Positions 38,422 to 49,403 of a stretch of 64,000 bases of DNA are shown here, in pieces. Below the pieces are notes generated by a model. That model was given only the letters and a program-made list of their open reading frames with translations, had not been told where the DNA came from and did not search any database. This stretch comes from Aquibium microcysteis. GTDB lineage: Bacteria; Pseudomonadota; Alphaproteobacteria; Rhizobiales; Rhizobiaceae. The stretch spans positions 1,601,001-1,665,000 of the forward strand of contig NZ_CP061080.1 of NCBI RefSeq assembly GCF_014495845.1, read 5' to 3'. Numbering within the stretch: position 1 is the first letter of the stretch; each line of letters opens with the position of its first letter. The translations under genes and the position numbers were made by a program.

Positions 38422-38907
38422 ATGGCCGGCGCCCTCACCCACATCAAGGCCTCCGGCGAGGCCCATATGGTCGACGTCGGCGCCAAGGACGAGACGAAGC
38501 GCATCGCCGTCGCCGAGGGGGTCGTCGTCATGAAGCCGGAGACGCTGACGATGATCCTCGAGGGCAATGCGAAGAAGGGCGACGTGCTCGCCACAGCGCG
38601 CATCGCCGGCATCATGGCGGCCAAGAAGACGCACGAGCTGATCCCGCTCTGCCATCCGCTGATGCTGAACAAGGTCGCCGTCGAGATCGAGCCCGACGAG
38701 GCGCTGCCGGGCCTGCGTGTCACCGCGACGGTCTCGGTCGCCGGCCGGACCGGTGTCGAGATGGAGGCGCTGACGGCGGCCTCCGTCGCCTGCCTGACGA
38801 TCTACGACATGGCCAAGGCCGTCGACCGCGGCATGACGATCACCGGCATCCGCGTTCTGGAGAAATCCGGCGGCAAGTCGGGCGACTGGCGCGTCGCGGG
38901 CCGGTGA
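38422..38907 (+). CDS. moaC: Cyclic pyranopterin monophosphate synthase
   Basis: 161 residues. Acts after MoaA in molybdenum-cofactor synthesis to give cyclic pyranopterin monophosphate. Signature segments are [23 protein letters not shown], the active-site [10 protein letters not shown] (about residues 74-83), [10 protein letters not shown] and the C-terminal KSGGKSGDW. The stop shares a base with the moeA ATG (TGATG). Confidence 0.97.
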
Positions 38908-40118
38908 TGGCAGCTGGGCTGCTCCCCATCGAGGAGGCGCTTTCGCGTCTGCTGGCGGGTGTCGCGCCGCTCGGCTCCGAACGCGTCGGAATCGACGAGG
39001 CGGGGGGCCGGATCCTCGCCCGTCCCGTCCGGGCGCTGCGCACGCAGCCGCCCTTCGATGCCTCCGCCATGGACGGCTACGCCATCCGCGGCGAGGATGT
39101 CGCCGCCCCCCCTGCCCGGCTCGCCGTGGTCGGCATCGCCCCCGCCGGCAGGCCGTTTGCGGGCGCCATCGGTCCGGGCGAAGCCGTGCGCATCTTCACC
39201 GGCGCGCCGGTGCCGGCGGGCGCCGACAGCGTGCTGATCCAGGAAAACACGCGCATCGTCGCGCCCGGCGTCGTCGAGGCGCTGGAGCCGGTGCGCACGG
39301 GCGCCAATATCCGCCGCCGCGGCCTCGACTTCACCGAGGGCGAGCCGCTGCTCGAGGCGGGCCGGCTCGTCGACGCCTCGGCGCTGGCGCTCGCCGCTTC
39401 CGCCAATCACGCCGAACTCGACGTGGTGCGCCGTCCGCTCGTGGCCGTGCTGGCCACCGGCGACGAGCTGCTGGCACCGGGGAGCGCCGTCGGCGAAGGT
39501 CAGATCGTCTCGTCCAACACCTTCGGCGTCGCGCTGATCGCGCGCCAGGCCGGCGCCCGCACGCTCGACCTCGGCATCGCGCCCGACGACCGCGAGGCGA
39601 TCGGGGCCGCCATCGACCGCGCGCTCGACGCCGGCGCCGAAATCATCGTCACGTCGGGTGGAGCCTCGGTCGGCGACCATGATCTCGTCCGCGACGTGCT
39701 TTCGGCGAAGGGCGGCGAACTCGATTTCTGGAAGATCGCGATGCGGCCCGGCAAGCCGCTGATGGCGGGGACGCTCGCCGGCCGCCGCATCCTCGGCCTG
39801 CCCGGCAATCCGGTCGCCAGCCTCGTGTGCAGCCACGTGTTCCTGAAGCCTCTGGTGGCAAGGCTCGCCGGCCGCGCCCATGTCGCCGACGTGCGCACCG
39901 GCGTCTTCGGCGGACCTGTCGCGGCCAACGACCTGCGGCAGGACTATATGCGCGCCCGCGTGGTCGAGACCGACGGCGTGCTCGTCGCCACGCCCTCCCC
40001 GGTCCAGGACTCATCGATGCTGCGCATCCTGGCAGAGGCCGGCGCGCTCGTCATCCGCGAACCCTTCGCGCCTGCGGCCGTCGCCGGAGATCCCTGCCGG
40101 CTCCTGATGCTGCGTTGA
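38907..40118 (+). CDS. moeA: Molybdopterin molybdotransferase
   Basis: 403 residues. Inserts molybdate into adenylated molybdopterin. Domains in order: N-terminal MoeA_N (PPFDASAMDGYAIRGEDV, about residues 50-67), the MoCF binding domain (VLATGDELLAPGS, about 183; TSGGASVGDHD, about 250; MRPGKPLMAG, about 280; GLPGNPVASLV) and the small C-terminal beta domain. Last gene of the trpD-trpC-moaC-moeA operon. In relatives I remember lexA directly downstream; here an 8.5-kb block intervenes. Confidence 0.96.
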   Translation: MAAGLLPIEEALSRLLAGVAPLGSERVGIDEAGGRILARPVRALRTQPPFDASAMDGYAIRGEDVAAPPARLAVVGIAPAGRPFAGAIGPGEAVRIFTGAPVPAGADSVLIQENTRIVAPGVVEALEPVRTGANIRRRGLDFTEGEPLLEAGRLVDASALALAASANHAELDVVRRPLVAVLATGDELLAPGSAVGEGQIVSSNTFGVALIARQAGARTLDLGIAPDDREAIGAAIDRALDAGAEIIVTSGGASVGDHDLVRDVLSAKGGELDFWKIAMRPGKPLMAGTLAGRRILGLPGNPVASLVCSHVFLKPLVARLAGRAHVADVRTGVFGGPVAANDLRQDYMRARVVETDGVLVATPSPVQDSSMLRILAEAGALVIREPFAPAAVAGDPCRLLMLR

Positions 40119-40162
40119 CGCGCCGCCGATCCCGGCGGAGAGCAGATCCGATCCTGTCGATG

Positions 40163-40198
40163 CATGAAGGCCGGAACCGCAGGGCTCCGGCCTTCATG
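40163..40198. terminator. Bidirectional terminator between moeA and the autotransporter gene
   Basis: CATGAAGGCCGGA and TCCGGCCTTCATG, a perfect 13-bp stem with a 10-base loop, between two convergent stops (40118 and 40244). No long T-run on either side, but stem strength and position make it the likely end of both transcripts. Confidence 0.75.
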
Positions 40199-40243
40199 TG
40201 AGCTGTGTCGACACGGACAGGCCGGGATTGACCGGACCTGCCT

Positions 40244-43200
40244 CTACCAGGCGACGGTGAGGCGCGCCTGGCCCTGGTAGCCCTTGAGTTCGATCTCCTG
40301 GACGCCGTATCGGCCCGAGACGCTCGACGACAGGCTGACATTGTCGTTCAGGGCGGTTTCGATGCCGAGTGCCAGTTCGAGTGCGGTTCCGCCGGTGCCG
40401 GTGGTGTAGGCGAAGTTGTCGACGGTCACCGTCTCGTCCGCGGTCAGGTCGTGTGCCACGGCGACATTGGCGAAGGTCGAGACGCTTTCGAAATGCCCCT
40501 CGGCGCGCAGGCCGCCGCGGACGCTCATCGCGTCGCCCGTCCCGAAGCGGACCTGGTCGACCCAGTCGCTCGAGAGATCGCTCACGGTCGTGTTCTGATA
40601 GGCGAACTGACCCCATGGCGTGACCCGGATGGTCTCGCTGCCGAAGGTGACGCCGGCTTCGACCACCATGGTCGCGGTCTGGGCGTCGACGGTGGTGGCG
40701 CTCGCCGCCGTCGGATTGAACGTCCAGTTGCTCGCGCCGTACTGGGCGACGGCGTCGACATAGGCCCGCTCGTTCGACCAGTTCGCCGTGACGCCTGCGG
40801 CATAGAGGTTGCCGCTGAGATCGGCGATGCCTGTCTCGGTGGTCACGTCGCTCACGGACCGGCCGTAGGAGGCGACGAAGCCGGCGCGGAAGTTGCCGCT
40901 GCCGATCACGTCGGTGCCGAACTGCGTGTAGTAGGTCTGCTGCGTATGCGAGGTGGCGTCCTTAATCTCGGTGCGGCTGCCGCCGGCCCGCATGAAGGAC
41001 GTCTGCATGTCGTCACCGGTGCCGAGGCCACGGCGATCCACCTTGCTGCCCAGGATGTCGAGCGATGCTGCACGAATGCTCTTCTCCAGCACCGAGAGGC
41101 CGTAGGTCTCGTCCTGGATGATCGAGCCGACACCGTAGACGATCACGTCGCCGGCCCCGAAGAGCTGTTCCTCGGTCCAGCCGCCCGTGCCTTCGACCGT
41201 CGCGACCGCGTTGGCGGTGCGGACCGACCGGGTCAGCACGACCTCGCGGCCGTTCTGCGTGAAACGCTCGGCCCGGTAGACGTTGGCGGCGGTATCGCTG
41301 CCGCCGATGCGGATCAGTTCGATGGTGCTGAGGTCGCCGAGCGCATCGCCGCGGTTGGAGTTGTGCCGCGCCAGCGTCACCGCCAGCGAGCCCGTGGCGT
41401 CGCCGCCGATGTTGGTCTGGTCGTAGTCGACGGCGGCCGCGTAGGTTCCCTGTCCGTAGACGATCTCGAAGAGCGAATCGGCCGTGTCGAGATTTAGATT
41501 GCCGCTGACGTTGACCACGCCCGGCGAATAGCCCGGGGACAGAAGGCCGCTGAAGGCGAGATCGCCGATGATGAAGACGTTGCCCGTGATGGTGCCATTG
41601 GTGATCACGGCGTCGCCGGTCACCTGAAGCTGTCCGCCGAGCGTTCCGCCGAGCACGGTCGAGCCGGCTTCGGCCGTCAGGCCGCCGACGATCGTCGAGC
41701 CGTTGGCGAAGTCGGCGTTCGCGCCTTGCTGGATGTAGAAACCGGCACCGGTGGTGAGGCCCGACCAGCTGGTGCCAGCCGCCACGGTCACCTTCGTGGC
41801 GCCCGACCCGGTCTTGGTGTCGTTGTCGAAGATGTTGCCGACGACGACCGTGTCGCTGTCGATGACGAAGTTGACGATGCCGTCGGATCCCGCGCCGTCG
41901 CGTTCGACCAGAAGCAGCGTTCCGTCGTTGCCGGTGATCGTCGTGCCGGCGCCGAGCGTGATGTTGGCGATGCCGCCGCTCTGGTCGAAATAGGCGTAGG
42001 CCAGCGACTTGTCCGTGGACAGGCTGACTCCCTTGGTGGTGATCGAGCCGCCGTTGACGACCGAGAGCGCGGAGAGATTGGCTCCGCCCGCGATCGAGCC
42101 GCCTTCCACCTCGATCGTCCCGCCGTTCGAAGCGATCACGCCGGTCTGCGAAGCGACGCCGTCGAGCGTGAGGCTGCCGCCGGCCACTTCGAAGCCGCCC
42201 GAACCGTTGATGGCACCCGAGAAGGTGGTCGAGGCGTTGGTGAGCTTCAGGCGGTTCGTGCCCAGTTCCACCGCGCCGGCGCCCGACAGCGTCACGACGT
42301 CGATGCCCGCCAGCGCCGATGCGATGTCGAAGGTGCCCGCCACGTCGATCGACGAGGATGCGGCGATCGATCCGCCCGCGGCGATGAACAGCGTCGTTCC
42401 CCCGTCGATGGTCGTCGCACCGGTATAGATGTTCACGCCCGACAGCGTCTGCGAGCCGCTCGCAACCTTCAGTCCGCCATTGCCGGCGATGACGCCCGAG
42501 AAGGTGGTCGAGGCCTGCGTGAGGATGAGGTCGTTGGCGCCGAGCGTCACGGTGCCGCCACCTGCGAGCGTGACGATCGAGGCGTCGGCGTCGTTGCCGG
42601 CGATATCGAGTTCGCCATCGACGGTGACCACCGCGGATGCCCCAATGCTGCCTGCGCCGTCGAGCACGAGCTTGGCGCCCGAGGAGACGCTGGTCCCGCC
42701 GGTGTAGCTGTTGGCGCCCGACAGCGTCTGCGTACCGCCCTCGACCGTGAAGCCGCCGCTGCCGGCGATCACGCCCGAAAACCCGGTCGAGCCGTTGGAG
42801 ACGACGAGGGTTCGGGTGCCGAGGGTCACGTCGCCGCCGCCGGACAGGGTGACGACCCGGGCGCCTGACGTCGTCGCGGCGATGTCGAACTCGCCCTCGA
42901 CCTTCACCTCCGCCGAGTTCTCGATGCTGCCGGCACCCGACAGGACCAGTTCGGCGCCGTCCGCAATCGACGTGGCGCCCGAGTAGGTGTTGATGCCCGT
43001 GAGCGTCTGGATGCCGCCGTCGACCGTGAAGCCGCCGCTTCCGGCGATGACGCCGGAGAAGGTCGTGGAGCCGTCGGAGATCACGAGCGTCTGTGCCCCG
43101 AGCGTGACGTTGCCGCTCCCCGACAGCGTGACGATCGTGGCGCCCGCCGTCGTGGCGGCGATGTCGAATTCGCCGGCGACCTTCACCTCGGCCGAATCCT

Positions 43201-45529
43201 CGATGCTGCCGTTGCCCGACAGCGCCAGCTCGGCCCCCGCATTGATCGTGGTGTCGCCGGTGTAGGTGTTGGTTCCCGACAGCGTCTGCGTTCCGGCCGC
43301 GACCGTCAGCCCGCCCGATCCGGTGATGACGCCGGCAAAGGTCGTCGAACCGTTCGAGACCGTGATCGTGTTGGCACCCAGCGCGAGGTCGCCGGCGCCC
43401 GCCAGCGTCGTCAGGCTGCGGTCGCCATTGGCGCCCGAAAGGTCGAGCTTTCCGTCGATCGTCACCTGGGACGATTCCGAGATGTCGGCGGCGCCCTTGA
43501 GCACGAGCGTCGTCCCGTCCTTCACCTCGGTGGTGCCGGCATAGCCGTTGTCGGCCGTCATGGTGATCGTGCCGACGGTCGTGCCGTCGCCGAGGATCAC
43601 GGAGCCGTTCGTCAGCGCGCCGTCCAGATAGGCGACGTTCTCGCCGAGGGCCCCGCCATTGGCGATGATGGTCCGCGTGCCGCCGGCCAGGTTGATGGCG
43701 TTCTTGAAGTGGACGTCGGAATCGGCACTGTCGGAGCCGAACAGCAGCGCGGATCCGTCGGTGACGAAGCTCGCCGACGCCCAGGTCACGGTCTGGCCAT
43801 TGTTAAGGCGCACCGTCAGGTCGCCGTCGACAGCGGCGAAGCCGCCCGAGCCGGTCCACTGGACGCGGCCGGACGCCGTGCCGAGGTGGCGGTCGAAGGT
43901 GCCGTTGGTCTGCAGCACGCCGCCGGCCAGGTTGATGTTGCTGTCATCGTGGATGCCGGTGCCGTCGTCGGCGTCCAGCACCCCGCCGGAGATCTTCGTC
44001 TGGCCGGTATAGGTGTTGACGCCGTTGAAGACGACGAGGCCGCTGCGGATGTCGATGCCGGCGCCCTTGCCGCTGGCGATCGAGGTGCCGGAGATGCTGC
44101 CGGCACTGTCGTCGGCGATCGTGCCGTTGAAGGTGATCGTCTTGCCGTCGCCCGGATCGAGCGTCACGGACGACCCCTTCATCATGAACAGGTCGGTACC
44201 GGCCGCCTGTCCTGCCTCGCCGCCGTTCTGGCTGGAGCCGGCATAGACGTTGTTGCCATCGAAGGTCGCGTTGCCGGTGATGGTGAGACTGCCGCCCGAC
44301 TGCACGAAGATCGCGCCGCCATAGGCCGAGCCGCCGCCGCCGCCCGTGCCGTTGGGGGTTCCGTCGGCGGTGGAGCCCACGCCGCCGCCGAAACCGGCCG
44401 CGCCGCCGGAACCGCCGGAACCTTCATTCGGGCCGTGATTGGCAGCCCCGCCATCATCGCCGTCGTCGCCGCCATTGCCGCCGATGCCGCCACCAGCGCC
44501 GAATCCACCGGAACCGCCGCTGCCGCCGCTGCCGCCGCTGCCTCCGGCTGCGGCGGAAATGGCGACGGCATTGCCACCGTCACCGCCATCGCCGCCGGCA
44601 CCGCCGCCATAGCCGAAGCTGCCGCCGCCGCCCGCGCCGCCGCTTGCGCCGCTGCCGCCGGCACCCGAAACGCCCGTCCCATAGGCGGTCACTTCGATGG
44701 CGAGCAGGAAGGCTCCCTCGGCAGCGGCCTTCGTCACCGCTGCGGCGGCGTCGCCCGTCTTGTCCGTGGTCAGCGCCGTGAATGCAGCCGCCGCCGCCGT
44801 CAGCTGCGCCGTCAGTGCGGCGTCGAGCGGCTGCGCGGAAGCGGTGGCCGCGGCCGTGAACGCGGCGGCCAGCGCCGTAAGCTGCGTCACCTCGACGGAT
44901 TCGGAGCCGGACGTATAGATGGCGTAGACCTGATCGGCCAGCGCCTTCACCGTCTGCACGGTCGACGCGGCGCCCGAAGCACCATCGCCGCCCTTGCCGC
45001 CGGCGCCTCCGACACCATCGCTCCCGTCGCCGCCGTTGAAGCCGTTCTGGCCACCGACGCCGTTGCCGTTGCCGGCGAAATAGGAGGACTCCGTCGGTCC
45101 ATCCCGGCCGTCGGCACCCGTCGAACCCGCGGTCCCGGTCCCCCGCCCGTTCAGCCCGCCGCCCGTCGCGCCCACGCCGCCATCGCCGCCGATCGCGGTG
45201 TTGCCGATGAAATCGACCGAATCGATGGTCACGGTGGCGCCGCTGCCGACGAAGATGCCGCCGCCCATGCCCGCGCCGCCGCCGCTGCCGTCGCTGCCCT
45301 GCGCCGTCTGGCCGGTGATCGTGGTGCTGGTGACGGTGTTGGTGCCGGCGAGGAATTCCGTTGCCCCCGCATGTCCGGCATAGCCGGCGACGACAAGCGT
45401 CATCGCCATCATCGAGGTGGTGGCGAGCGCCCGCTGGCGGAAGCGTCGCCTGGTCGTCGAAGGGCCTGTCGTCGAAGAAACCTGGGCGCCGCTGATCGGA
45501 TTCCGGCGGTTTTCGGTGGAACGGTTCAT
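40244..45529 (-). CDS. Giant autotransporter adhesin with glycine-rich and repeat passenger (type Va secretion)
   Basis: 1761 residues. In order: an extended signal peptide (about 1-58, basic TTRRRFRQR then a hydrophobic core ending AGATE); two glycine-rich tracts (about 80-185 and 285-405) separated by an Ala/Thr-rich helical segment; a beta-helix passenger with Gly-Asn-rich motifs; five passenger repeats with FSGVI cores at residues 731, 824, 917, 1010 and 1103; further beta-helix; and a C-terminal beta-barrel of about 270 residues ending in the aromatic RLTVAW. It should export and display its passenger on the cell surface for adhesion or aggregation; no protease or catalytic motif is seen. 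The ATG at 45529 has AGGAG upstream; a TTG seven codons earlier is an alternative. Downstream of a sensor-kinase/regulator pair on the same strand. Confidence 0.9.
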   Translation of the reverse strand: MNRSTENRRNPISGAQVSSTTGPSTTRRRFRQRALATTSMMAMTLVVAGYAGHAGATEFLAGTNTVTSTTITGQTAQGSDGSGGGAGMGGGIFVGSGATVTIDSVDFIGNTAIGGDGGVGATGGGLNGRGTGTAGSTGADGRDGPTESSYFAGNGNGVGGQNGFNGGDGSDGVGGAGGKGGDGASGAASTVQTVKALADQVYAIYTSGSESVEVTQLTALAAAFTAAATASAQPLDAALTAQLTAAAAAFTALTTDKTGDAAAAVTKAAAEGAFLLAIEVTAYGTGVSGAGGSGASGGAGGGGSFGYGGGAGGDGGDGGNAVAISAAAGGSGGSGGSGGSGGFGAGGGIGGNGGDDGDDGGAANHGPNEGSGGSGGAAGFGGGVGSTADGTPNGTGGGGGSAYGGAIFVQSGGSLTITGNATFDGNNVYAGSSQNGGEAGQAAGTDLFMMKGSSVTLDPGDGKTITFNGTIADDSAGSISGTSIASGKGAGIDIRSGLVVFNGVNTYTGQTKISGGVLDADDGTGIHDDSNINLAGGVLQTNGTFDRHLGTASGRVQWTGSGGFAAVDGDLTVRLNNGQTVTWASASFVTDGSALLFGSDSADSDVHFKNAINLAGGTRTIIANGGALGENVAYLDGALTNGSVILGDGTTVGTITMTADNGYAGTTEVKDGTTLVLKGAADISESSQVTIDGKLDLSGANGDRSLTTLAGAGDLALGANTITVSNGSTTFAGVITGSGGLTVAAGTQTLSGTNTYTGDTTINAGAELALSGNGSIEDSAEVKVAGEFDIAATTAGATIVTLSGSGNVTLGAQTLVISDGSTTFSGVIAGSGGFTVDGGIQTLTGINTYSGATSIADGAELVLSGAGSIENSAEVKVEGEFDIAATTSGARVVTLSGGGDVTLGTRTLVVSNGSTGFSGVIAGSGGFTVEGGTQTLSGANSYTGGTSVSSGAKLVLDGAGSIGASAVVTVDGELDIAGNDADASIVTLAGGGTVTLGANDLILTQASTTFSGVIAGNGGLKVASGSQTLSGVNIYTGATTIDGGTTLFIAAGGSIAASSSIDVAGTFDIASALAGIDVVTLSGAGAVELGTNRLKLTNASTTFSGAINGSGGFEVAGGSLTLDGVASQTGVIASNGGTIEVEGGSIAGGANLSALSVVNGGSITTKGVSLSTDKSLAYAYFDQSGGIANITLGAGTTITGNDGTLLLVERDGAGSDGIVNFVIDSDTVVVGNIFDNDTKTGSGATKVTVAAGTSWSGLTTGAGFYIQQGANADFANGSTIVGGLTAEAGSTVLGGTLGGQLQVTGDAVITNGTITGNVFIIGDLAFSGLLSPGYSPGVVNVSGNLNLDTADSLFEIVYGQGTYAAAVDYDQTNIGGDATGSLAVTLARHNSNRGDALGDLSTIELIRIGGSDTAANVYRAERFTQNGREVVLTRSVRTANAVATVEGTGGWTEEQLFGAGDVIVYGVGSIIQDETYGLSVLEKSIRAASLDILGSKVDRRGLGTGDDMQTSFMRAGGSRTEIKDATSHTQQTYYTQFGTDVIGSGNFRAGFVASYGRSVSDVTTETGIADLSGNLYAAGVTANWSNERAYVDAVAQYGASNWTFNPTAASATTVDAQTATMVVEAGVTFGSETIRVTPWGQFAYQNTTVSDLSSDWVDQVRFGTGDAMSVRGGLRAEGHFESVSTFANVAVAHDLTADETVTVDNFAYTTGTGGTALELALGIETALNDNVSLSSSVSGRYGVQEIELKGYQGQARLTVAW
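42223..43339 (-). repeat. Exact 279-bp periodic repeats encoding autotransporter passenger units
   Basis: Four full units of exactly 279 bp (93 codons) with no insertion or deletion: the Phe codon of the FSGVI/FAGVI/FSGAI motif ends at 43339, 43060, 42781, 42502 and 42223. Each unit carries FSGVI-GSGG, QTLSG-N-YTG, GSI--SA-V-V-GE-DIA and VTLSG-G-VTLG blocks, the pattern of passenger-associated transport repeats. Partial copies flank both ends. Confidence 0.9.
44320..45190 (-). repeat. Glycine-rich low-complexity coding region, with 9-bp tandem repeats
   Basis: Two GGxGG-rich stretches (44320-44665 and 44975-45190) encode runs of Gly with Ser, Ala, Asp and Asn, recalling PGRS-type sequence. 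Within them the 9-mer CCGCCGCTG (+ strand) occurs three times perfectly at 44514-44540. Because units are multiples of three, length changes would keep the frame. Confidence 0.85.
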
Positions 45530-45623
45530 GGACCGGAAGTCTCCTGGCAACTCTACTTTCCGGCGTTCGGAATCATCACGGCCGGCGAATCTCGCACATC
45601 GCTACCACTCGCTCCTTACGGAA

Positions 45624-45637
45624 AATTAACGTTAATT
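45624..45637. promoter_or_regulatory. Perfect 14-bp palindrome upstream of the autotransporter gene
   Basis: AATTAACGTTAATT is its own reverse complement and stands out as AT-rich in GC-rich DNA. It lies 95 bases before the adhesin start and 32 bases after the response-regulator stop, in a 139-base gap. A plausible operator for the adjacent regulator or another dimeric protein; TTAA halves also recall CtrA sites, but the spacing is wrong. Confidence 0.6.
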
Positions 45638-45668
45638 ACATCGGCGTGACCGCCGCGACGGGCGGGCG

Positions 45669-46349
45669 TCAGCCGTCGATGCCGAAAGGGATCGTCAGCT
45701 CGTAGCCCCAGTTGCGGATGGCGCGGATGCCGCGCTCCCCGGCGCCGGCTTCCTTGATCTTCTGGTTGATCCGGAAGATCGTCACGTTGATCGTGTTCCG
45801 GCTGGCGATGCTTTCGTCGCCGCCGAGCACCGCACCGATCTGCCAGGCTTCGAACCGGCGCTCCGGGGCGCGCGCCAGAGCCACGAGCACCGCGAGTTCG
45901 GACGCGGTCAGGGGAAGACTGCGCTCGGGACCGTGCAGCTGCCGGGTGTTGAGGTCGACGCGGAAGTCGGGAACGGATGCCGCGGGCGCCGCGACCCGGC
46001 GGCGCAGCGCGCCCACGACCGCGGTCAGTTCGTCCGCGGCGACCGGCGTGGTGAGATAGATGTCCGCCCCCATCTCGTAGCCGTCGCGCCGGTCCGACGG
46101 TCTGTCGCGTTCGGACAGGAGGATGATGCCGATGCGCGGCTGCAGTCGGCGCATGCGCGCGGTCAGGCTCAAGCCGCTCTCGCCGGGCAGATTCACGTCG
46201 ACGAGCAGCATGTCCGGGTTGATCGGGCGGGTTGCCTCGATGAAATCCTCGGCACAGCCGAAGGCGCTGACGCGATAGCCGACGTCGGAGAGGGAGCGCG
46301 TGAAGGCGCGGCGCAGGCCGTCATCGCTCTGGATCACGACGATGTTCAT
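45669..46349 (-). CDS. OmpR-type response regulator with atypical receiver (conserved Lys replaced by Thr)
   Basis: 226 residues. The receiver domain (1-115) has the acidic pair D9-D10, phosphoacceptor D51 in LLVDVNLPGESG, and S79 at the Thr/Ser position. The lysine that normally precedes Pro in the fifth-strand loop is T101 (YLTTPV in place of LTKPF). The C-terminal winged-helix DNA-binding domain (about 130-222) includes LPLTASELAVLVAL and a recognition region SRNTINVTIFRINQKI. It overlaps the upstream histidine-kinase gene by 4 bases (ATGA), so they are a pair. The likely target is the adhesin gene directly downstream. Confidence 0.9.
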   Translation of the reverse strand: MNIVVIQSDDGLRRAFTRSLSDVGYRVSAFGCAEDFIEATRPINPDMLLVDVNLPGESGLSLTARMRRLQPRIGIILLSERDRPSDRRDGYEMGADIYLTTPVAADELTAVVGALRRRVAAPAASVPDFRVDLNTRQLHGPERSLPLTASELAVLVALARAPERRFEAWQIGAVLGGDESIASRNTINVTIFRINQKIKEAGAGERGIRAIRNWGYELTIPFGIDG

Positions 46350-48355
46350 CGACGGCCCGGCCTCTCCCGCAGCCGATCGGCCTCTCCGGAAAGCGCGTGC
46401 CGCGGGTCGCGGTCCGGCGGAACGGCCGGAAGCCAGAACTCGAGACGAATTCGTCCCTGGGCCACCGTGCAGCCGACCCGGCCGGCGAGCATCTCGGTGA
46501 CGCCCTGAACGATGTAGAGACCGAGGCCGGAACCGGGCACCCCGCGCGAGCCGGGCGCGCGGTAGAACTTGTCGAACACGCGCGCGGGGTCGGGTGCCAT
46601 GTCGGGCAGCAACGCGTTCTCGATGGTGACGACCGCTCCGTCGGCGCCACCGCGCGCGAGCCTTCGGCATGCGAGGACGATCCGCGAACCCGCCGGCGCA
46701 TGTTTGATGGCATTCTCGACGAGGTTCGACAGGACCATGTCGACCATCTGCCGGTCGCTTGCGACCAGGACCGGCTCCCGTGCCTGCATTTCCAGCGGAT
46801 TGACCGGCGAGTGGCTTGCCACGACCCCGCGCAGCGCTTCGGCGAGGTCGAAGCGTGTCGCCCCCCCTTTGGGATCGGCCTCCTCCGGCTGACTGCTGCG
46901 CCGCACGATGGCGTCGATCTCGCACAGTGCCGCGCGGATGTCGCGGTATCGCTCCGGACCGAGGCGGGCGGGATCGATCGAGAGCTGGATGGCGGCGAGC
47001 GGATTGCGGATCTCGTGCACCAGCATGGCGGCGAAGCGGTCCTGGACGTCGCGCTGCCGCCGCGCGGCGTCCAGCGCCTGGGTCACCAGGTCCAGCCGCG
47101 CACGGTTCTCGGCGGCGCGTGCATCTCTCTCCCGCGCCCGGCGCTGGATCAGGAAGAACATCTGCGCCCCGTACATCAGGACGAGGATGTAGGGATAATG
47201 GTAGGTCCACTCGCCGAGATTGCCGATCCCCAGCAGCGGGACCACCGTCACGGCGAATGCGACGGCCTGAACCCCGTAGAGCGTGCGCAGCAGCGGTGAC
47301 CGGACCCCGTCCCTCCATGGCCAGACCGCCATCGCGAAATAGAACGCGGAACTGGCGAAGAGGAGCATGGAATTCAACCGAAGCGCGAATTGCGCATGCC
47401 CCGCCATCAGAATCGCAATCAGGACGGCCGAGCAGCCCAACATCATCCAGCTGACGGTGGAGACGAGCGTTGCGGGGGCGTAGAGCAGGAAGACCTGGCG
47501 ATGCAGCATCACTCCGAGGGCAGGCGCCAGACAGACCAGGGCGCTGGTCAGACCGCTCACCCGGCCGGCCGGTGCTTCGGGCATCAGGGCGGCGATATAG
47601 CCCATCACCGCCAGCATCGAGACGATGTAGCAGAGTTGCGAAGCGATGAAGAGGACGGTGATCGGCGCCGGCCGGCGCACGAAATCGCCGATCGACCAGA
47701 ACAGGATGCACGCCGCGATGGCCAGGAAGAGGACGAGCAGGGCGTCCGAGGCCAGTTCGGCCTGGCGTACGTCGCGCCAGTCGATCGCCTCCACCCCGAA
47801 GAGCGATGAACTGGTCGTCTCCAGCCGCAGGAAGTAGACGGTGTCGGGCGCGGCCGGACGGATCTCGAAGGTCAGGGCCACCGTGGCGGCCTCGCGCTGC
47901 CGGAAAGGCAGAAGATCGCCGGTTTCCCGTCGCTGCCAGCCCGCTCCGGAGGAATCCGGCTCGAACAGCGTGACCCTGTCGAGAAAGGTCGGCCTGATGT
48001 AGAGGACGAGCGGCCGGCCATCGGCCTGCGGTCGCACGCGCAGGCGGAACCAGTGAGCCGACGGCGTGAAGCCTTCCGAGAAGAGCTTCTTCACCGGCGC
48101 GAACTGCATCCCGACCACATCCTCGACGCCCAGCCGCGCCGACGGGTCCTCGAGCACCGCTCGCTCGACGACGTGGTCGGACCCCGGATGCAGCGAGACG
48201 AGCGAGGCGGCACCCAGGATGGTGATGACGATCCCGATGACCGCGAGCAATGGCAGCAGCAACTCGCTTCCATAGTCGGCGACACGCGAGCGAATGCTCG
48301 CCGTCTTCAGATGAGATGCGACCGGCTCGGCAGCCCGCCTCGGTGAGAATTCCAT
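46346..48355 (-). CDS. 7TM sensor histidine kinase (7TMR-DISM type) with altered G1 box
   Basis: 669 residues. One N-terminal helix (about 33-55), an extracytoplasmic domain of about 165 residues resembling 7TMR-DISMED2 (FSEGFTPSAHWFRLRV..LVLYIRP), seven membrane helices (about 225-420), a short coiled coil, then the kinase. The phosphoacceptor is H447 in LVHEIRNPLAAI. The ATP lid has a normal N box (NLVENAIKHA) and G2 box (GVPGSGLGLYIV), but at the G1 position, normally DxGxG, it reads IENALLPD. DISMED2 domains are predicted to bind carbohydrates. The ATG at 48355 is used; a GTG at 48424 would add 23 residues. Confidence 0.87.
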   Translation of the reverse strand: MEFSPRRAAEPVASHLKTASIRSRVADYGSELLLPLLAVIGIVITILGAASLVSLHPGSDHVVERAVLEDPSARLGVEDVVGMQFAPVKKLFSEGFTPSAHWFRLRVRPQADGRPLVLYIRPTFLDRVTLFEPDSSGAGWQRRETGDLLPFRQREAATVALTFEIRPAAPDTVYFLRLETTSSSLFGVEAIDWRDVRQAELASDALLVLFLAIAACILFWSIGDFVRRPAPITVLFIASQLCYIVSMLAVMGYIAALMPEAPAGRVSGLTSALVCLAPALGVMLHRQVFLLYAPATLVSTVSWMMLGCSAVLIAILMAGHAQFALRLNSMLLFASSAFYFAMAVWPWRDGVRSPLLRTLYGVQAVAFAVTVVPLLGIGNLGEWTYHYPYILVLMYGAQMFFLIQRRARERDARAAENRARLDLVTQALDAARRQRDVQDRFAAMLVHEIRNPLAAIQLSIDPARLGPERYRDIRAALCEIDAIVRRSSQPEEADPKGGATRFDLAEALRGVVASHSPVNPLEMQAREPVLVASDRQMVDMVLSNLVENAIKHAPAGSRIVLACRRLARGGADGAVVTIENALLPDMAPDPARVFDKFYRAPGSRGVPGSGLGLYIVQGVTEMLAGRVGCTVAQGRIRLEFWLPAVPPDRDPRHALSGEADRLRERPGRR

Positions 48356-48620
48356 GAGCCCCGACAGACGCCCCTCTCGTAAGAGCCGGGCGACACCGGA
48401 ATTCCCCTGCGACTTCCACGCCACGCCCCGCCTGCCAACCTATGCAACGCACGCGGAGAATTTACCAGCGGTTGACCGACCTTCGTCCCCAGCCGTCGGC
48501 GCTTCCATCCCCGGCGCCGCGGCTCGCCCATCGCGCCGGTCAGGCGGGCGTGGCAGCGGGAAGCGGCGCTGGCCGGTTTCTGCGCATGCGCGGTGACCGG
48601 ATCCGAACAAAGCGATTGCG

Positions 48621-48635
48621 GAACAAGACTGGAAC
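48621..48635. promoter_or_regulatory. LexA (SOS) box of lexA
   Basis: GAAC-AAGACTG-GAAC is the reverse complement of the alphaproteobacterial SOS box GTTC-N7-GTTC, 54 bases before the lexA ATG. It indicates that LexA represses its own gene, as known in Rhizobiales. Confidence 0.85.
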
Positions 48636-48645
48636 AGATAGGTTT

Positions 48646-48660
48646 GTTCCGGTTTTGTTT
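48646..48660. promoter_or_regulatory. Second, imperfect LexA box
   Basis: GTTC-CGGTTTT-GTTT differs from GTTC-N7-GTTC by one base and lies 10 bases after the first box in the opposite orientation. A weaker second operator is plausible. Confidence 0.5.
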
Positions 48661-48689
48661 TTCGCACGATTCCTTCCGGGGGTGGACCC

Positions 48690-49403
48690 ATGCTGACCCG
48701 CAAGCAACACGAACTGCTGCTCTATATCCACGAGCGTCTGAAGGAGACGGGCATACCGCCGTCCTTCGACGAGATGAAGGAGGCGCTCGATCTCGCCTCC
48801 AAGTCGGGCATCCACCGCCTGATCACGGCGCTGGAGGAACGCGGTTTCATCCGGCGGCTGCCCAACCGCGCCCGCGCGCTGGAAGTGCTGCGGCTGCCCG
48901 ATTCGATTGCGCCCGGCCTCGGCGCGCCGCGGAAGTTCTCGCCCAGCGTCGTGGAGGGCGGACTAGGCAGGAAGCCGGAAGCGAGTCCCGCGCGCACGGC
49001 CAGCAACGACGACAACGCGAACGGTGTTTCGATCCCGGTGATGGGCCGCATCGCCGCCGGCGTTCCGATCGACGCCATCCAGCACCAGACCCATTCGGTC
49101 GTGGTGCCGCCGGACATGCTGGCGGGCGGCGACCACTACGCGCTGGAGGTGAAGGGCGATTCGATGATCGAGGCCGGCATCCTCGACGGCGATACGGTCA
49201 TCATCCGCAATACTTCCAGTGCCACGCCCGGGGACATCGTGGTGGCGCTCGTCGACGGCGAAGAGGCGACGCTGAAGCGCTTCCGCCGCAAGGGCGCGTC
49301 GATTGCGCTCGAAGCGGCCAACCCCGCCTACGAGACGCGGATCTTCGGACCCGACCGCGTCAGCGTCCAGGGCAAACTGGTCGGCCTCATCCGGCGTTAC
49401 TGA
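48690..49403 (+). CDS. lexA: LexA repressor
   Basis: 237 residues. The winged-helix DNA-binding domain (1-70, [17 protein letters not shown] and [22 protein letters not shown]) is followed by a linker and the S24 autoprotease domain. The cleavage site Ala-Gly is in [10 protein letters not shown]; the catalytic Ser is in KGDSMIEAG and Lys in EATLKRF. Self-cleaves with RecA filaments to open the SOS regulon. Has its own SOS box. The stop overlaps the convergent comEC stop by 7 bases. Confidence 0.97.

What the first reader, a model, noticed from the sequence alone, without database searches (positions are those of the whole stretch)
40119..48689. Sensor kinase + regulator + giant autotransporter block between moeA and lexA
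In the sequence, moeA (ending 40118) and lexA (starting 48690) are separated by exactly three leftward genes: a 7TM sensor kinase, an overlapping OmpR-type regulator and a 1761-residue autotransporter. From memory, trpD-trpC-moaC-moeA-lexA-comEC is a conserved run in Rhizobiales, so this looks like an accessory insertion. The kinase has a DISMED2-like domain predicted to bind carbohydrates. I infer a self-contained module in which a surface glycan cue controls display of an adhesin. No transposase, integrase or flanking repeat was seen.
Basis: partly seen in the sequence, partly recalled or inferred. Interest (0 to 1): 0.75.

Follow-up and report, generated by a model that had tools for sequence, protein, structure and literature searches.

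The report
Travelling adhesin operon, altered regulator
Three genes (a membrane sensor, a DNA-binding regulator and a giant surface protein that is probably an adhesin) sit together between two housekeeping genes and recur as the same unit in other bacteria, but in this strain the regulator has lost residues it would need to be switched by phosphate, so the usual signalling story probably does not hold here.

Summary
Three leftward genes lie between moeA and lexA: a 7TMR-DISMED2 histidine kinase (HK), an OmpR-type regulator (RR; 4-nt overlap) and a 1761-residue PATR/PF03797 autotransporter (AT). It is an accessory unit: moeA and lexA are 105-239 bp apart in 6 of 20 relatives, and the unit fills the gap in two genus-mates. 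The same HK-RR-AT order occurs at other places in Oricola, Kaistia and Prosthecomicrobium, and the three gene trees are compatible, so the genes travel together. A 23-bp sequence upstream of AT, shared by three Aquibium-group genomes and unique in this 6.1-Mb genome, is the likely RR operator; weaker matches sit at the same place in the other three genera. The glycan-cue phosphorelay is not supported for this strain: its RR lost both metal-binding acidic residues and the conserved lysine and has Glu at the normally small T+1 position. 22 of 22 comparable relatives keep these features; one further relative shares the loss. The kinase family lacks DxGxG, which 30 of 30 other HATPase domains sampled in this genome have. 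Best reading: a dedicated surface-protein control operon whose regulator here has become a non-orphan pseudo-receiver. Ligand and adhesion are untested.

The parts
38907..40118 (+). moeA, left neighbour (not part of the unit)
   Evidence: MoeA_N 3.9e-41, MoCF_biosynth, MoeA_C; frame checked
40162..40199 (.). strong hairpin between the convergent moeA and AT ends; possible two-way terminator
   Evidence: -30.5 and -31.8 kcal/mol, z -5.1 and -7.0 on the two strands, 0 of 200 shuffles as good; not listed by the terminator scan, which wants a T-run
40244..45529 (-). AT: 1761-aa autotransporter. N-terminal Gly-rich region with a helical stretch, PATR repeats, C-terminal beta-domain
   Evidence: PATR 5.9e-9, autotrns_rpt 6e-13, PF03797 2.4e-24 on residues 1300-1761; 87% identical over the full length in G004
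45618..45640 (-). 23-bp conserved upstream element TGTAATTAACGTTAATTTTCCGT, candidate RR operator (two TAAT boxes 10 bp apart)
   Evidence: alignment of three Aquibium-group loci; only site in the genome at up to 2 mismatches of the 21-base pattern; best-scoring sites of the Kaistia, Prosthecomicrobium and Oricola loci lie in their RR-AT gaps
45669..46349 (-). RR: OmpR-type regulator, 226 aa, with degenerate receiver (Q7, S8, E80, T101; D51 and S79 kept)
   Evidence: Response_reg 1.2e-18, Trans_reg_C 1.1e-9; active-site table
46346..48424 (-). HK: 7TMR-DISMED2 sensor histidine kinase, 692 aa from GTG (probable start ATG at 48355); H470 kept, no DxGxG in the G1 box
48621..48635 (-). LexA-box-like GTTCN7GTTC in the HK-lexA gap, close to lexA; not necessarily part of the unit
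   Evidence: 3 in the window, chance mean 1.3; the stretch is conserved in the three Aquibium-group loci; consensus recalled
48690..49403 (+). lexA, right neighbour (not part of the unit)
   Evidence: LexA_DNA_bind 2.8e-16, Peptidase_S24 9.4e-33

Best explanation
The block is a dedicated surface-protein control operon, HK-RR-AT, that has been inherited or transferred as one unit and sits at different places in different Hyphomicrobiales. In the ancestral form the DISMED2 sensor controls the regulator, which binds a tandem TAAT operator just upstream of AT and sets production of the autotransporter, most likely an adhesin. In this genome's lineage the receiver has lost the metal-binding and lysine residues, so the regulator most likely works without Asp phosphorylation: it is either always active or controlled through protein contact with the retained kinase or by its own amount. 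Shown by sequence: unit, order, co-inheritance, conserved upstream element, receiver residue loss, kinase box change. Inferred: operator binding, adhesion, phosphate-independent control.
For: Unit: HK and RR directly precede AT in 6 of 6 genomes whose AT beta-domain region matched at 46% or more over about 460 aa (G000, G004, G003 across two contigs, G734, G665, G620). HK, RR and AT trees do not conflict. Element: near-identical in three loci whose surroundings have diverged, unique in 6.1 Mb, and matched in the RR-AT gap of three other genera. Receiver: Q7, S8, E80 and T101. Of the 23 other rows besides P0028, 22 of 22 with data have E and D at 7 and 8, 23 of 23 have K at 101 and 23 of 23 have Ala or Gly at 80. 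P0028 (89% identical, from a separate contig) shares Q7, S8 and E80 and has A101. The window receiver evolves fast (dN 0.106 and 0.135 to G004 and G003, against 0.029 between those two), yet 34 of 36 residues of the recognition-helix stretch match P0028 and 31 of 36 match G004. No second close copy of the RR was listed: the next match in this genome is 31%.
Against: No expression, binding or adhesion data. The upstream element could be the AT promoter itself rather than the RR site. The weight matrix also finds sites of score 16 or more somewhere in 2 of 20 loci without the unit. D51 is kept, so weak phosphorylation is not excluded. The fast RR branch, and a longer HK branch too (0.44 against 0.14 for G004), could also mean early decay, although the RR reading frame is intact in two diverged strains.
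Confidence: 0.6

Rival explanations
1. Canonical phosphorelay: a glycan binds DISMED2, the kinase phosphorylates D51 of RR, and RR-P changes AT transcription.
For: H470 and D51 are intact; the receivers of G003, G004, Oricola, Kaistia and Prosthecomicrobium are canonical; [quoted passage not shown]
Against: In this strain DD1, DD2 and K are lost and T+1 is Glu; the HK family lacks DxGxG. In the one DISMED2 peptidoglycan-binding test whose passage I saw, the domain mostly stayed soluble (RgsP, PMC6107284). The phosphorelay may hold in G003 and G004.
Confidence: 0.2
2. The control genes are decaying here: RR is on its way to a pseudogene and AT is now constitutive or regulated by something else.
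For: Long RR branch (0.36 against 0 for G004) and longer HK branch (0.44 against 0.14); loss of catalytic residues.
Against: Intact overlapping ORFs; recognition-helix stretch conserved 31 of 36 with G004; the changed state is shared with P0028 after 11% divergence; the element upstream of AT is intact; HK is about as distant from the Kaistia, Prosthecomicrobium and MAG kinases as that of G004 (32.4, 33.4 and 33.8% against 34.2, 32.1 and 34.8%).
Confidence: 0.15
3. The block is a chance neighbourhood of an ordinary kinase-regulator pair and an unrelated autotransporter.
For: Kinase-regulator pairs and autotransporters are each common.
Against: Same order in four genera in different surroundings with compatible trees; 6 of 6 testable genomes.
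Confidence: 0.02

Closest known systems
RetS / LadS 7TMR-DISMED2 sensor kinases of Pseudomonas
   Different: No attached receiver domain was found here; encoded beside its own regulator and target; the G1 box lacks DxGxG.
Pseudo-receiver / atypical response regulators (CmrT, FrzS, NblR, WhiI, ChxR; PMC12632262)
   Same: Lacks DD1, DD2 and K and has a bulky T+1, which meets that review's definition (sections read).
   Different: Not an orphan: it overlaps its kinase gene, and close relatives are canonical. [quoted passage not shown]
Type Va autotransporters with PATR repeats
   Same: PATR repeats and a PF03797 beta-domain.
   Different: Carries a conserved Gly-rich N-terminus with a helical insert of unknown role (low-confidence model); comes with its own regulators. 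The name fibronectin-binding in a source record (P0120) was not tested.
Adhesin genes controlled by a neighbouring two-component pair (general kind, recalled)
   Same: Regulators lie directly upstream of the surface-protein gene.
   Different: No description of a system with these three families was seen in the search listings made; most subscription papers are not in that library.

Membership tests
Type Va (classical) autotransporter | C-terminal beta-domain | tested here: met
   PF03797 2.4e-24 on the last 462 aa; not listed when the full length was scanned
Type Va (classical) autotransporter | Passenger with PATR-type repeats | tested here: met
   PF12951, 6 stretches; TIGR02601, 5 stretches
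Type Va (classical) autotransporter | Adhesive function | not testable with these tools
   needs a binding or biofilm assay
7TMR-DISM histidine kinase (RetS/LadS-like) | DISMED2 extracytoplasmic domain | tested here: met
7TMR-DISM histidine kinase (RetS/LadS-like) | Seven-helix membrane domain | tested here: inconclusive
   a run of helices follows the domain in the model, but PF07695 was not listed for the window protein and is below cut-off in two homologues
7TMR-DISM histidine kinase (RetS/LadS-like) | Attached receiver domain(s), as in hybrid RetS and LadS (called hybrid in the title and abstract start of PMC4866733) | tested here: not met
   no Response_reg match in HK
Canonical histidine kinase | Phospho-acceptor His | tested here: met
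   H470 invariant in 7 of 7 and in 16 of 16 rows
Canonical histidine kinase | G1 box DxGxG contacting ATP (role recalled) | tested here: not met
   no DxGxG in 7 of 7; Asn in the D column in 7 of 7 by MAFFT, 5 of 7 by HMM (Kaistia gapped, Prosthecomicrobium may keep a D), against D in 30 of 30 other domains
Canonical OmpR/PhoB response regulator | Receiver and winged-helix domains | tested here: met
   PF00072, PF00486
Canonical OmpR/PhoB response regulator | Five receiver active-site residues | tested here: not met
   DD1 Q, DD2 S, K T; D and S/T kept
[quoted passage not shown]
   three of five lost; definition from PMC12632262
Pseudo-receiver (PsR) | Works without Asp phosphorylation | not testable with these tools
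   needs biochemistry
Mobile genetic element or genomic island | Own integrase or transposase, flanking repeats, odd composition | tested here: not met
   only three genes in the block; no border repeat above chance; GC equal to the rest; no tRNA beside it

The most novel reading that the evidence does not exclude
A natural before-and-after pair for the birth of a pseudo-receiver: in one genus, the same kinase, regulator, operator and target exist with a canonical receiver (G003, G004) and with one that has lost phosphate chemistry (this genome, and P0028 by its sequence). The kinase is kept, and its whole family already carries an altered ATP box. The signal would pass by contact between kinase and regulator rather than by phosphate.
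Probability: 0.27. Interest if true: 0.75.

Novelty: new variant of a known kind. Interest (0 to 1): 0.52.

Why it matters
How bacterial pseudo-receivers are activated and inactivated is described as a mystery, and nearly all of the characterised ones in that review are orphans (PMC12632262). Here the kinase, the likely operator and the target gene are all adjacent, and close relatives keep the canonical form, so side-by-side tests are possible. The unit also gives a clear example of a giant surface protein that travels with its own regulators.

Tried and rejected
Mobile-element origin with its own transfer genes: no integrase, border repeat or GC shift seen. Rfam families in 40000-49000: none at gathering score. 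Promoter scan: none found. LexA control of HK: the box lies near lexA and about 200 bp or more from HK; left open. AT N-terminal structure: AlphaFold mean pLDDT 46.3, too low to search. HK structure: mean pLDDT 68.9, used only for the sensor and kinase domains; the Foldseek list shows kinase-domain matches. dN/dS by YN00 failed for most pairs; only NG86 values are used, and dS is substantial. Literature: Aquibium with autotransporter, 0 papers; Kaistia with autotransporter and histidine kinase, 0; 7TMR-DISM with histidine kinase, response regulator and adhesin, 1 review (listing only); searches on G1-box terms, adhesins in Rhizobiales (12 of 24 listed), pseudo-histidine kinases and DISM ligands were seen as listings only. 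In one search the moeA query was in the wrong frame; one search replaces it. In some searches the strand of some control kinase loci was wrong; one search replaces the DxGxG counts (28 and 19 of 30 became 30 of 30). In one search tblastn did not list AT in the Kaistia locus although the frame is there; with composition statistics off it matches at 54% over 1749 columns. Rows left out: of 26 HK protein hits 16 were aligned, leaving out P0016 (381-aa fragment) and the weak P0017, P0018 and P0020-P0026; of 81 RR hits 23 were aligned with two locus sequences, leaving out the fragment P0040 and P0051-P0107; of 52 HATPase matches in this genome the 30 best were given loci and tested.

Full report
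What is there. Between moeA (38907-40118, +) and lexA (48690-49403, +) lie exactly three leftward genes: HK 46346-48424, RR 45669-46349 (4-nt overlap with HK) and AT 40244-45529. HK matches DISMED2, HATPase_c and HisKA (just under its cut-off); RR matches Response_reg and Trans_reg_C. AT matches PATR, and its last 462 residues match the Autotransporter beta-domain at 2.4e-24. Orthologous records suggest that HK starts at the ATG at 48355. A strong hairpin lies between the convergent moeA and AT ends.

Which organism. The window lies in a 6.1-Mb single-contig genome. No tool named the species of the window itself. Oricola sp. (G734), Kaistia defluvii (G665) and Prosthecomicrobium (G620; the source name is cut short) are inferred from equal contig lengths (110227, 2785797, 171297).

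Is it an insertion? One search found a lexA-like match in 60 of 61 genomes, own included; in four of the relatives (G035, G038, G042, G044) the best match is weak (E 1e-6, 8e-5, 6e-8 and 2e-4) and probably another S24-type protein. The 20 best lexA rows after the window's own were fetched with flanks and compared with the window's genes in the right frames. In 6 of 20, moeA and lexA are adjacent, 105-239 bp apart. In G004 the gap is 9435 bp and holds HK, RR, AT and a ParD/ParE-like pair. In G003 a contig ends inside AT; the missing AT end sits next to moeA on another contig end, so the arrangement fits but is not on one contig. In G029 the gap is 9192 bp of other genes. In the remaining 11 of 20, including genus-mate G001, moeA was not found in the stretch fetched. 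The conserved run is thus real in only part of the family, and the unit is an addition to it. G002, an incomplete genome, was not among the 20.

Does it travel as a unit? Full-length HK was found in 3 of 61 genomes of the first sample (G000, G003, G004). Searches with AT at E 0.001 or less gave matches in 44 of 297, 42 of 394, 12 of 397 and 3 of 28 genomes, most of them to repeats or to beta-domains of other autotransporters; only the best 2 to 4 candidates per genome were scored, so absences are not firm. At 46% identity or more over about 460 C-terminal residues the hits are G000, G003, G004 and G734 and G665 and G620; the samples overlap. G287 has a 206-residue piece on a 3-kb contig that could not be tested. 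In G734, G665 and G620 the order is HK, RR, AT in the same direction, with HK at 33-36% and RR at 42-51% identity and AT at 58, 54 and 42% over nearly the full length; none of the window's flanking genes searched (ppiD, trpD, trpC, moaC, moeA, lexA, comEC, gltX) matches those three loci. Every genome that could be tested, 6 of 6, has the whole unit. A metagenome-assembled genome has HK (35%) followed by the start of RR (44%) at a contig end. Maximum-likelihood trees of HK, RR and AT are compatible: the Aquibium group with Oricola apart from Kaistia with Prosthecomicrobium. The AT tree leaves the three Aquibium-group sequences unresolved, and the RR tree groups the window with G004 only weakly (82/88). 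This is what joint inheritance predicts. Patchiness plus different sites suggests transfer or repeated loss; I cannot separate the two.

Candidate operator. In the RR-AT gap of the three Aquibium-group loci a 23-bp stretch, TGTAAT, three free bases, then CNTTAATTTT, is kept while the surroundings have changed. It is at 45618-45640, 89 bp before the AT start. A 21-base version of the pattern occurs once in the whole genome with up to 2 mismatches, and 0 times in the reversed control. A weight matrix from the three sites has its best site within the RR-AT gap in the Kaistia (score 18.4), Prosthecomicrobium (16.0) and Oricola (25.4) loci. In resampled gaps the score was reached in 1 of 1000 (Kaistia) and 4 of 1000 (Prosthecomicrobium). 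Against this, 2 of 20 loci without the unit also have a site of 16 or more somewhere, up to 22.5 (a third high one among the 21 scanned, L094, is the G003 locus itself). TAAT boxes ten bases apart fit tandem binding by OmpR-type regulators (recalled), but an AT promoter element would look similar.

The regulator is altered in this strain. In an alignment of 25 RR sequences (table) the window has Q7 and S8 where 22 of 22 rows with data among the 23 besides P0028 have E and D (one row is truncated); T101 where 23 of 23 have K; and E80 where 23 of 23 have Ala or Gly. D51 and S79 are kept. P0028, an 89% identical protein from another contig, shares Q7, S8 and E80 and has Ala at 101. A sequencing error is therefore unlikely, and the state probably predates the split of the two. 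By the definition in PMC12632262 (sections 4-7, 18 and 19 read) this is a pseudo-receiver. That review also reports that non-acidic DD2 and fewer small residues at T+1 mark pseudo-receivers, and that only CmrT and FrzS among the 20 atypical regulators it describes are not orphans. The window receiver has changed fast: NG86 dN is 0.106 to G004 and 0.135 to G003, against 0.029 between these two, at similar dS. Its identity to outgroup receivers is lower, for example 63 and 59% to P0039 and P0042, against 71 and 68% for G004. AT shows no such effect; the HK branch is longer too (0.44 against 0.14 for G004). The recognition-helix stretch is conserved, 31 of 36 with G004. No second close copy was listed in the genome; the next match is 31%.

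How it most likely works. Shown: a co-inherited HK-RR-AT unit, a conserved element before AT, a receiver lacking phosphate-chemistry residues in this lineage, and a kinase family with a changed ATP box. Inferred: RR binds the element and controls AT; AT is an adhesin; in this lineage control is by regulator amount or by contact with HK. The glycan cue is only a prediction for the domain class (passage in PMC6107284).

Verdict. The simple phosphorelay is unlikely in this strain. The unit is a new variant of a known kind, with one interesting twist: a recent, non-orphan pseudo-receiver next to its kinase and target, with canonical relatives for comparison.

Noticed in passing
L172:15624-16148; L152:16017-16607: An IalB-family gene (PF06776) directly follows, and overlaps the end of, AT in Oricola and Prosthecomicrobium. 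No match to it was found in the window, the G003 and G004 loci or the Kaistia locus (best E 0.67), so the unit may once have had a fourth gene.
   Followed up: partly
L152:16726-19503: A second autotransporter-like reading frame follows the IalB gene in Prosthecomicrobium (weak AT matches).
   Followed up: no
L063:12427-13163: A ParD/ParE-like pair sits between AT and moeA in Aquibium sp. ELW1220; it is absent in the window.
   Followed up: partly
L068:3875-12999: In G029 the moeA-lexA gap holds about 9.2 kb of other, mostly metabolic-looking genes (judged by eye), so the gap seems to accept insertions.
   Followed up: no
L095:3-4057: A metagenome-assembled alphaproteobacterium has the HK-RR pair beside a periplasmic glucan gene (MdoG, PF04349), perhaps a hint at the sensed ligand.
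   Followed up: no
window 48621-48635: LexA-box-like GTTCN7GTTC lies in the divergent gap between HK and lexA; whether it affects HK is open.
   Followed up: no
window 44670-44980 (AT residues about 186-287): A helical stretch inside the Gly-rich N-terminal part of AT, also present in Kaistia; low-confidence model, role unknown.
   Followed up: partly
L151:16284-17000: A LuxR-type quorum-sensing regulator gene lies downstream of AT in the Kaistia locus.
   Followed up: no
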